Assembly (NCBI RefSeq): GCF_000012485.1
Contig: NC_007512.1
Coordinates: 559,001-623,000 of the forward strand
Reading direction: 5' to 3'
Length of the DNA stretch: 64,000 bases
Source of the DNA: Pelodictyon luteolum DSM 273
GTDB lineage: Bacteria; Bacteroidota; Chlorobiia; Chlorobiales; Chlorobiaceae
Shown: positions 60,696 through 63,468 of the stretch, in pieces
How the letters are laid out: each line of letters begins with the position of its first letter
How positions within the stretch are numbered: the first letter of the stretch is position 1
Position numbers and translations under genes: made by a program
Notes under the pieces: generated by a model
Told to the model about the DNA's origin: nothing
Databases searched by the model: none
The model's input: only the letters and a program-made list of their open reading frames with translations

Positions 60696-61277
60696 ATGAG
60701 TGAACAACTGACCTTCAGAGAAGCAATGGGCCCTATAAGCGGGGACGGCAACATAGATTGTTCCGGGAGAGGGTTGACCTCGCTTGAAGGTGCTCCGCAG
60801 GAGGTCCGCTGGGACTTCAACTGTTCCGGAAACAGGCTTGAATCGCTTGAAGGCGGCCCCGTTGGCGCCTACATCAACATCGACTGTTCCGGGAACATGC
60901 TCAGCAACCTTATCGGCGCTCCGCCGATTGTCGGCTCGTTCAACTGTTCAGGTAACCAGCTCACCACCCTGCAGGGCGGACCCATGGAAGTAGCTGCAGA
61001 TTTCGATTGTTCGGACAATATGCTCGACTCTCTTGACGGTGGGCCGGCGTTTGTCAGCGGGAAATACTCCTGTGCCGACAACCAGCTGACCTCCCTGATC
61101 GGTGCCCCTGCCGAGGTCGGCGACTTCGACTGTTCCGGCAACCGCCTCATGTCTCTGGCGGGATGTCCCGATGTGGTCAACGGTGATTTCATCTGCGGCG
61201 ACAACGATGAACTCTTTACTGAAGAAGAGGTCCGAGAGGCCTGCGAAGTGAGGGGAAATGTTATAAACGGGATATAG
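60696..61277 (+). CDS. Cys-containing leucine-rich-like repeat protein
   Basis: 193 residues, mostly seven to eight units of ~20-22 residues with consensus FDCSGNxLxSLxGxPxxVxG (e.g. FNCSGNRLESLEGGPVGAYIN; FDCSGNRLMSLAGCPDVVNGD). Each turn has Cys at the same place, so a solenoid with a Cys ladder is likely. A short acidic C-terminal helix ends it (TEEEVREACEVRG). No signal peptide. Similar repeat proteins occur in phages and scattered bacteria; function unknown. It is preceded by ~250 bp with no other feature. Confidence 0.75.
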   Translation: MSEQLTFREAMGPISGDGNIDCSGRGLTSLEGAPQEVRWDFNCSGNRLESLEGGPVGAYINIDCSGNMLSNLIGAPPIVGSFNCSGNQLTTLQGGPMEVAADFDCSDNMLDSLDGGPAFVSGKYSCADNQLTSLIGAPAEVGDFDCSGNRLMSLAGCPDVVNGDFICGDNDELFTEEEVREACEVRGNVINGI

Positions 61278-62049: not shown

Positions 62050-62667
62050 TCAGCCCGTCATGGCGACCGCTTTTTCAATCAGCACATATGCGGCTGCCGA
62101 GAGTTCCTGAAGGTCCGGCTTCATGAGCGGGAGGTATCTTCTGGCGCCTGACTCCCTGTCTACGACCATGTGCAGCACATGTTCCTTCACCATGTTTGCG
62201 AGTGTGGTGCTTATTGCATGTTCCATTTCCGAGCTGCTGCCCTTCGGCATGCCGGAGATCGATTTTCCGTAGGCTGCGAGGTGCATACGGTCGGCCTCCA
62301 GAACGGTTTCCGTGATGCGCCGGCCGTCCAGAAGGGGGTCGCCGGCAGCAGAGAGGAGGATGACATGCAGCATCGTTTCAAGCTCTGGACGTATATGGCC
62401 GTATCCTTGTGCGCTGTCTGATACCCTTAAAAATGCATCCTCGACACTCTCCCTTACCGGGCGGCGCTCTTCGAGCAGTGTTCCGAGGGAGATGCCGAGC
62501 GCTTCGGCAAATTTCGCCAGTTCCCTGAAACGTACCTCCTGACTGCCCGATTCAATTTTGGTGACGGCGGTCCTCGGCATAGCTATCCGTCTGGCGAGTT
62601 CCTCCTGAGAAAGCCCCTTTTGGCCGCGGAGTTCTTTGATCCTCTGTCCGATGTTTTCCTCTGTCAT
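62050..62667 (-). CDS. HTH (Xre) protein with a Panacea/SocA-like C-terminal domain
   Basis: 205 residues from ATG 62667. Xre helix-turn-helix at ~5-60 (IGQRIKELRGQKGLSQEELARRIAMPRTAVTKIESG). The C-terminal ~110 residues read TMLHVILLSAAGDPLLDGRR, ITETVLEADRMHLAAYGKSISG and YLPLMKPDLQELSAAAYVLIEKA. This matches the Panacea (DUF4065/SocA) pattern of KLLYfaD..Hl..yG.sItG followed by a P.D...ls..e....e segment. Panacea proteins are known as antitoxins that neutralise varied toxins, and HTH fusions autoregulate. No small toxin gene is adjacent. The domain call is mine by eye. Confidence 0.7.
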   Translation of the reverse strand: MTEENIGQRIKELRGQKGLSQEELARRIAMPRTAVTKIESGSQEVRFRELAKFAEALGISLGTLLEERRPVRESVEDAFLRVSDSAQGYGHIRPELETMLHVILLSAAGDPLLDGRRITETVLEADRMHLAAYGKSISGMPKGSSSEMEHAISTTLANMVKEHVLHMVVDRESGARRYLPLMKPDLQELSAAAYVLIEKAVAMTG

Positions 62668-62686
62668 TTGCAATAGTATACAAATA

Positions 62687-62701
62687 GTTCTACTATAGAA
62701 C
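62687..62701. promoter_or_regulatory. Operator-like inverted repeat GTTCTA-N3-TAGAAC
   Basis: A perfect 6+6 bp palindrome 20 bp upstream of the Xre-type gene's start, in an AT-rich patch that could hold its promoter. A typical site for autorepression by a dimeric HTH protein. Confidence 0.6.
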
Positions 62702-62865
62702 AAGGCGGGTTCTCCATAAGAACCGCAATCATCTGCTTGCGGGTGCTGCTTGATACCGCAGGGGACCGCTTGTACGGGCAATATAAAACAAACCGGGCGG
62801 AGGATACTCATGGTTGCGTTGCTTGCAGGCAGAGAGAGATCAACTTCAACACAGGAGAACATCAT

Positions 62866-63468
62866 ATGAAAAAGGGCTATACGCATATCACGGTCATTCT
62901 TGACCGCTCGGGATCTATGGGAATCATCCGTGATGACACCATCGGCGGACTGAACGCGTTTGTCGATCGCCAGGCGGCGGAGCCGGGGGATGCGACCCTT
63001 ACGCTTGTGCAGTTCGATTCGGGGGATCCCTACGAGGTGCGCCTGCACTTCATGCCGATCGGCGAGGTTCGGGCGCTGAACCCTGAAACCTATGTTCCGA
63101 GGGGTATGACGCCGCTGCTCGATGCACTCGGCCGAGCAATCAACGACATAGAGTGCGGCATCGCAAAGCTTGAGGAAGGCCGGCGGCCCGAAACGGTTGT
63201 CGTTGCAGTCATTACCGACGGCCAGGAAAACTCGAGCACGGAGTTCACGAAGCCGCAGGTGGAGAAAATGGTCGGCCGGAAGTCGGCCGAAGGGTGGGAG
63301 TTCATTTTTCTCAGCGCAGATCTGTCGGCCATCGAGGACGCTCAGCAGCTGGGGTTTCGTCAGGATGCCACCGCATTATTCGACAAAAGCCCGGAAGGGG
63401 TGGCCTGCTGCATGGAGATGCTGTCGAGCAGGGTGAGCGAGAAGCGCATTGCTCCAGATGATGCGTGA
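62866..63468 (+). CDS. von Willebrand factor type A domain protein
   Basis: 200 residues forming a single vWA domain: MIDAS motif DRSGSMG (D13-x-S-x-S), TLVQFDSGDPYEV, the distal Thr in RGMTPLLDALGRAI, and VITDGQENSS with the last metal Asp. Cytoplasmic. vWA proteins bind partners through a metal ion; partner unknown. ATG 62866 follows AGGAGAA. Divergent from the HTH-Panacea-like gene with a shared ~200-bp upstream region. Confidence 0.88.
   Translation: MKKGYTHITVILDRSGSMGIIRDDTIGGLNAFVDRQAAEPGDATLTLVQFDSGDPYEVRLHFMPIGEVRALNPETYVPRGMTPLLDALGRAINDIECGIAKLEEGRRPETVVVAVITDGQENSSTEFTKPQVEKMVGRKSAEGWEFIFLSADLSAIEDAQQLGFRQDATALFDKSPEGVACCMEMLSSRVSEKRIAPDDA

What the first reader, a model, noticed from the sequence alone, without database searches (positions are those of the whole stretch)
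62050..62701. HTH-Panacea-like antitoxin without an obvious toxin, behind a perfect operator palindrome
The C-terminal half carries the D..HL.xYGxSIxG pattern of Panacea domains, which neutralise many different toxins. Panacea antitoxins normally sit beside a small toxin gene; here the neighbours are a DEDD exonuclease (downstream, same strand), and a vWA protein and a DUF3127 protein (divergent). Either it is a stand-alone regulator or one of these is an unusual partner. The GTTCTA-N3-TAGAAC site lies between the divergent genes and could control both.
Basis: partly seen in the sequence, partly recalled or inferred. Interest (0 to 1): 0.6.

Follow-up and report, generated by a model that had tools for sequence, protein, structure and literature searches.

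The report
Toxin-less antitoxin relative, likely self-regulating switch
A green-sulfur-bacterium DNA-binding protein descends from a known family of antitoxins but has lost its toxin and its neutralising signature, and it now looks like a self-controlling gene switch that almost always sits beside a von Willebrand-type (vWA) gene.

Summary
An XRE-type HTH protein (62050-62667, minus; 205 aa) has a C-terminal half that Pfam misses but that is a divergent Panacea domain. Three tests agree: a profile-profile match far above shuffles, a Panacea protein as the only good structural hit, and bridging homologues elsewhere in Bacteroidota that are true Panacea proteins, four of five with a HigB2/RelE-like gene directly downstream. 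In the Chlorobiaceae branch the GPV signature needed for neutralisation and the C-terminal tail are gone, and no toxin remnant was found. So it descends from an HTH-Panacea antitoxin but does not look like a working one. The layout resembles restriction-modification controller (C) proteins. In this genome the pair occurs only here, so the protein most likely regulates itself. A divergent vWA (or F1N-vWA) gene accompanies 14 of 15 loci. It is a good candidate for shared control but a poor toxin candidate, because intact copies persist without the regulator. The exonuclease and DUF3127 genes are only local neighbours. Binding, regulation and any signal sensed remain untested.

The parts
62050..62667 (-). 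HTH-Panacea-derived regulator gene, 205 aa
   Evidence: ORF and 11 full-length Chlorobiaceae members; HTH_3 2e-14
62470..62655 (-). XRE/Cro-CI HTH domain, residues about 5-66, with invariant S20-Q21 (SQE motif) as in C proteins
   Evidence: PADLOC Control_protein 2.5e-12; C.BclI and C.AhdI among the closest PDB structures
62053..62388 (-). divergent Panacea domain, residues about 94-205, without the GPV motif and the C-terminal SH..PW tail
   Evidence: hhalign 48.2 against a maximum of 19.5 in shuffles; Foldseek top hit SocA-like Panacea, TM 0.69
62687..62701 (.). proximal operator GTTC-N7-GAAC, -34 to -20 from the regulator ATG, overlapping the -35 box
62675..62680 (-). -10 box TATACT of the regulator, ending 7 nt before the ATG (suggests leaderless mRNA)
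   Evidence: TATAAT/TATACT/TATCAT at the same place in all aligned loci; inferred
62698..62703 (-). -35 box TTGTTC, 17 bp from the -10 box, overlapped by the proximal operator
   Evidence: TTGTT conserved at the same place; only 3 of 6 consensus bases; inferred
62866..63468 (+). divergent vWA protein, 200 aa, intact MIDAS; conserved partner gene

Best explanation
The gene encodes a DNA-binding regulator descended from an HTH-Panacea antitoxin. In the Chlorobiaceae line the toxin gene, the GPV neutralisation motif and the end of the Panacea domain were lost. The HTH dimer binds two tandem GTTC-N7-GAAC operators 22 bp apart around its own, probably leaderless, promoter. By analogy with R-M controller proteins, it would activate from the distal site at low level and repress from the proximal site (over the -35 box) at high level; plain autorepression is also possible. 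The same operator probably sets expression of the divergent vWA gene or F1N-vWA operon. The altered Panacea half would serve as dimerisation or sensing domain. Shown by computation: homology, motif and toxin loss, operator architecture and uniqueness, vWA linkage. Inferred: DNA binding, autoregulation, vWA control, sensing.
For: Panacea origin: hhalign E 1.2e-7, score 48.2 against a maximum of 19.5 in 198 column shuffles; Foldseek top viral hit is a SocA-like Panacea protein, E 1.4e-3, probability 1.0, next hit E 0.12; whole-length profile matches in other Bacteroidota (E 3e-32 to 4e-21) that score PF13274 at 1e-16 to 2e-19. Toxin loss: four of five bridging homologues have a gene of 114-129 aa directly downstream, HigB-2-like by PDB profile (E 0.013-0.026, five of six hits); no convincing trace of it by tblastn in the Chlorobiaceae loci. 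Motif loss: FGPVP, FGPIP, FGPTP or YGPVP in the bridging set, absent in all 11 full-length Chlorobiaceae members; a GPV double mutant abolishes neutralisation in a tested PanA (PMC8832971). Operator: sites starting at -56 and -34 in every locus read, two loci with one mismatch; all 13 exact tandem sites in 86 Chlorobiaceae genomes lie at this gene or its remnant. C-protein likeness; leaderless mRNA, paired C-boxes and the SQE-sigma70 contact in C proteins (PMC4824078).
Against: No binding or expression data. The -35 hexamer is weak (3 of 6). The promoter of the vWA gene could not be placed, and operator distance to that gene varies. In G074 an intact regulator and operator stand without a vWA next door. 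In multidomain antitoxins Panacea may sense rather than neutralise (PMC10440598), so loss of GPV does not by itself prove loss of antitoxin activity.
Confidence: 0.7

Rival explanations
1. It is still an antitoxin and the divergent vWA protein is its unusual toxin; the two form a divergent toxin-antitoxin pair under a shared operator.
For: vWA or F1N-vWA is the divergent neighbour in 14 of 15 loci; 9 of 9 regulator-bearing genomes have the vWA gene against 2 of 52 others; distances of the two proteins correlate (Mantel r 0.65, p 0.0004), though shared ancestry of the genomes would also do that.
Against: Intact vWA homologues exist without the regulator: a second copy in the same genome (67% identity) next to a divergent WYL-type regulator, and copies in G012 and G055, genomes in which only HTH-level matches or none were found. 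The G012 copy groups with a Panacea-linked one (support 90/91). The GPV motif is gone. No vWA toxin of this kind is known to me. Divergent layout is unusual for type II pairs.
Confidence: 0.1
2. It neutralises a toxin encoded elsewhere in the genome or by a phage, in trans.
For: Panacea antitoxins are very promiscuous (PMC8832971); small toxins are hard to recognise.
Against: No small gene is conserved next to it; GPV motif and tail lost; type II antitoxins are normally cotranscribed with their toxins. Not tested directly.
Confidence: 0.1
3. The DEDD exonuclease downstream is the toxin or effector partner.
For: Same strand, 114 bp downstream; also adjacent in G017, G029 and G007.
Against: Absent beside the regulator in G023, G043, G011, G025 and G024; looks like an ordinary RNase_T/DnaQ-type exonuclease.
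Confidence: 0.03
4. The C-terminal half is not Panacea but an unrelated helical domain.
For: No Pfam PF13274 match even at E 1, none in the genome; no PDB fold match at E <= 0.001 for the C-terminal half.
Against: Profile-profile, fold and bridging-homologue evidence agree. The PDB searches named no Panacea structure at all, so their silence says little.
Confidence: 0.04

Closest known systems
HTH-containing Panacea antitoxins (PanA, DUF4065/PF13274; PMC8832971, PMC10440598)
   Same: N-terminal HTH plus C-terminal Panacea fold; whole-length homology to bridging Bacteroidota members that do score PF13274
   Different: No GPV motif, no C-terminal tail, no adjacent toxin, below Pfam detection; linked instead to a divergent vWA gene
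Restriction-modification controller (C) proteins such as C.BclI, C.AhdI, C.Esp1396I
   Same: Among the closest solved HTH structures and PADLOC Control_protein; SQE motif; two tandem palindromic operators before its own gene, proximal one over the -35 box; probable leaderless mRNA
   Different: 205 aa with an extra domain against roughly 80-100 aa; no restriction or methylation genes alongside; operator GTTC-N7-GAAC rather than a known C-box
FtsZl1/vWA operons (PMC2875224) and vWA/tubulin conflict systems (PMC7159879)
   Same: In G043, G025 and G024 the neighbouring genes are F1N, vWA and an FtsZ-like protein
   Different: The window locus has the vWA alone; family membership of the FtsZ-like protein was not tested

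Membership tests
Panacea antitoxin (PanA) | Pfam SocA_Panacea match over the curated cutoff | tested here: not met
   No hit at E <= 1; none in the genome
Panacea antitoxin (PanA) | Panacea homology by profile-profile comparison or bridging homologues | tested here: met
Panacea antitoxin (PanA) | Panacea fold | tested here: met
   C-terminal model pLDDT 90; best BFVD hit a SocA-like Panacea protein, TM 0.69/0.64
Panacea antitoxin (PanA) | GPV motif critical for neutralisation | tested here: not met
   absent in all 11 full-length Chlorobiaceae members
Panacea antitoxin (PanA) | small toxin gene beside it | tested here: not met
   none conserved in the Chlorobiaceae loci; present in four of five bridging loci
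Panacea antitoxin (PanA) | neutralises a toxin | not testable with these tools
   needs a bench test
R-M controller (C) protein | XRE HTH with SQE motif | tested here: met
R-M controller (C) protein | tandem palindromic operators upstream of its own gene | tested here: met
R-M controller (C) protein | leaderless transcript | tested here: inconclusive
   fixed -10 box ending 7 nt before ATG; 5' end not mapped
R-M controller (C) protein | adjacent restriction and methylation genes | tested here: not met
   no such gene recognised in the neighbourhoods read

The most novel reading that the evidence does not exclude
A Panacea domain has been turned from toxin neutraliser into the sensing half of a controller-type switch that governs a vWA (or F1N-vWA-FtsZ-like) conflict or membrane-remodelling system. 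It would be a natural case that isolates the sensor role proposed for Panacea.
Probability: 0.22. Interest if true: 0.65.

Novelty: new variant of a known kind. Interest (0 to 1): 0.45.

Why it matters
The role of Panacea in multidomain antitoxins is an open question; a sensor role is the favoured hypothesis (PMC10440598). A natural branch that keeps the HTH and the Panacea fold but has dropped both toxin and GPV motif lets that idea be tested without a toxin in the way. It also suggests an evolutionary path from antitoxin to regulator and gives a compact, conserved operator to work with.

Tried and rejected
Pfam, NCBIfam and PADLOC on the whole protein find only the HTH. PDB Foldseek with the full model returns HTH-driven matches, with the C-terminal half nothing at E <= 0.001; a PDB sequence-profile search with the C-terminal half gave nothing usable. 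The collection scan for close relatives found only one other full-length gene. A wider regulon was looked for: no second tandem site in the genome. A toxin remnant was looked for by tblastn: nothing convincing. A promoter for the vWA gene could not be fixed. The operator is not shared with the bridging homologues, whose upstream palindromes differ. No full-length relative of the regulator is in the plasmid collection; phages were searched only with the vWA protein. The vWA tree does not separate Panacea-linked from unlinked copies cleanly.

Full report
Where it lies. The window is part of a single-contig 2,364,842-base genome of the Chlorobiaceae; the only full-length relative in the scan of the public genome collection is in a Pelodictyon luteolum MAG, at 81% identity. 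The size suggests Chlorobium luteolum DSM 273 (from memory, not tested).

The gene. ATG at 62667, stop at 62050-62052, 205 aa. Residues 5-66 form an XRE HTH (HTH_3 2e-14), residues 67-91 are a low-confidence linker, and 94-205 are a helical domain with a small hairpin. Full-length homologues occur in 9 of 61 sampled Chlorobiaceae genomes and in 11 of the 86 later scanned in the family, with further pieces at contig ends. The HTH half is strongly conserved (77% mean pairwise identity) and the C-terminal half much less (44%).

Is the C-terminal half Panacea? Pfam says no even at E 1, and a search of the genome with PF13274 finds nothing. Three other tests say yes. A profile of the nine homologues aligned to eleven Panacea domains from sister genomes gives E 1.2e-7, score 48.2; 198 column-shuffled controls reach at most 19.5 and the reversed profile 9.7. 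The predicted structure of the half alone (pLDDT 90, pTM 0.84) has one good match among viral models, a SocA-like Panacea protein (E 1.4e-3, probability 1.00, TM 0.69/0.64; next hit E 0.12). And the profile of the whole family finds full-length relatives elsewhere in Bacteroidota (G316, G213, G369, G348, later G455), of which the four scanned score SocA_Panacea at 1e-16 to 2e-19. The PDB searches were silent for this half.

What was lost. Four of the five bridging genes have a gene of 114-129 aa directly downstream; a profile of these four matches HigB-2-type toxins in the PDB (five of six hits, E 0.013-0.026). That is weak but one-sided. The fifth, G455, has no such gene there. The bridging proteins carry an F/YGP(V/I/T)P motif and a tail of some 45 residues with an SH..PW or related signature; the Chlorobiaceae members lack both. 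In one tested PanA, single changes in the GPV motif were tolerated but the double change abolished neutralisation (PMC8832971). tblastn of the bridging toxins against the Chlorobiaceae loci gave nothing convincing. Because GPV-type motifs are present in the other Panacea proteins examined, the absence here is best read as loss.

The operator. A second copy of the same type lies at 62709-62723. Counted from the start codon the two GTTC-N7-GAAC sites begin at -34 and -56 in every locus read (G017 distal and G043 proximal with one mismatch). Downstream of them is a constant TATAAT-like box at -13 to -8, and TTGTT stands at -36 to -32, so transcription should start at or next to the ATG. Across 86 Chlorobiaceae genomes the tandem pattern occurs 13 times without mismatch, each time at this gene or a remnant of it; one-mismatch hits outside these loci are scattered. 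In this genome there is one such site, at its own promoter. Single GTTC-N7-GAAC sites are fairly common, so the pair and its fixed position carry the weight.

Likeness to controller proteins. C.BclI and C.AhdI are among the nearest solved HTH structures, and PADLOC's Control_protein model scores 2.5e-12. C proteins bind two palindromes, activate at low and repress at high level, contact sigma70 through an SQE motif, and commonly have leaderless mRNAs (PMC4824078). The protein here shares SQE, tandem sites and geometry, but has no restriction or methylation genes beside it and carries a second domain. So it may work like a C protein without being one.

The neighbours. A vWA gene or an F1N-vWA pair is divergent in 14 of 15 loci whose upstream side is held (own, G017, G023, G029, G007, G011, G069, G075, G043, G025, G024, G081, G063, and G074 C101 where the regulator is decayed); the exception is G074 C130. 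In G063 the vWA match ends after about 30 residues. The vWA protein also occurs without the regulator: a second copy at C1:961404 of the same genome beside a WYL-type regulator, and copies in G012 and G055. An addictive toxin should not outlive its antitoxin, which argues against the TA rival, though a harmless variant cannot be excluded. The exonuclease and DUF3127 genes are neighbours in only some loci.

Mechanism. Most likely a self-regulating switch, with the vWA gene as probable second target and the altered Panacea half as dimerisation or sensing domain. The order of activation and repression is borrowed from C proteins. Confidence is 0.7 for the regulator reading as a whole, lower for vWA control.

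Novelty. HTH-Panacea proteins are known (343 HTH-bearing PanAs in PMC8832971). A GPV-less, toxin-less branch with a controller-type operator and vWA linkage was not found in the papers searched. New variant of a known kind.

Noticed in passing
L027, L031, L032, L095, L097 (G043, G025, G024, G081, G063): F1N (about 360 aa, no Pfam match) with vWA, and in three loci an FtsZ-like protein (Pfam Tubulin 3e-28 in G024), next to the regulator. F1N relatives occur in other phyla: directly behind an HTH gene in Euzebya and Bosea, and near caspase and trypsin-like genes in Bradyrhizobium.
   Followed up: partly
G000 C1:961404-961988 (L064:7405-7989): Second vWA copy, 67% identical, with a divergent WYL-type regulator and a downstream trypsin-like protease; no tandem operator. 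The regulator and protease calls are by eye.
   Followed up: partly
L026, L028 (G023, G029): A RelE (PF06296) and HTH antitoxin pair sits between the vWA and DUF3127 genes.
   Followed up: partly
phage records: The vWA family is found in 215 phage records, 35-41% identity among the best.
   Followed up: no
62810-62869: A 19-codon reading frame with its own GGAGG ends in an ATGA overlap with the vWA start and is kept in G017; possible leader peptide (read by eye).
   Followed up: no
60696-61277: Leucine-rich-repeat-like protein with regular repeats, weak match to LRR models.
   Followed up: no
G074 C101 and C130 (L099, L093): One genome holds a decayed regulator with intact operator and vWA, and an intact regulator with operator elsewhere.
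   Followed up: partly
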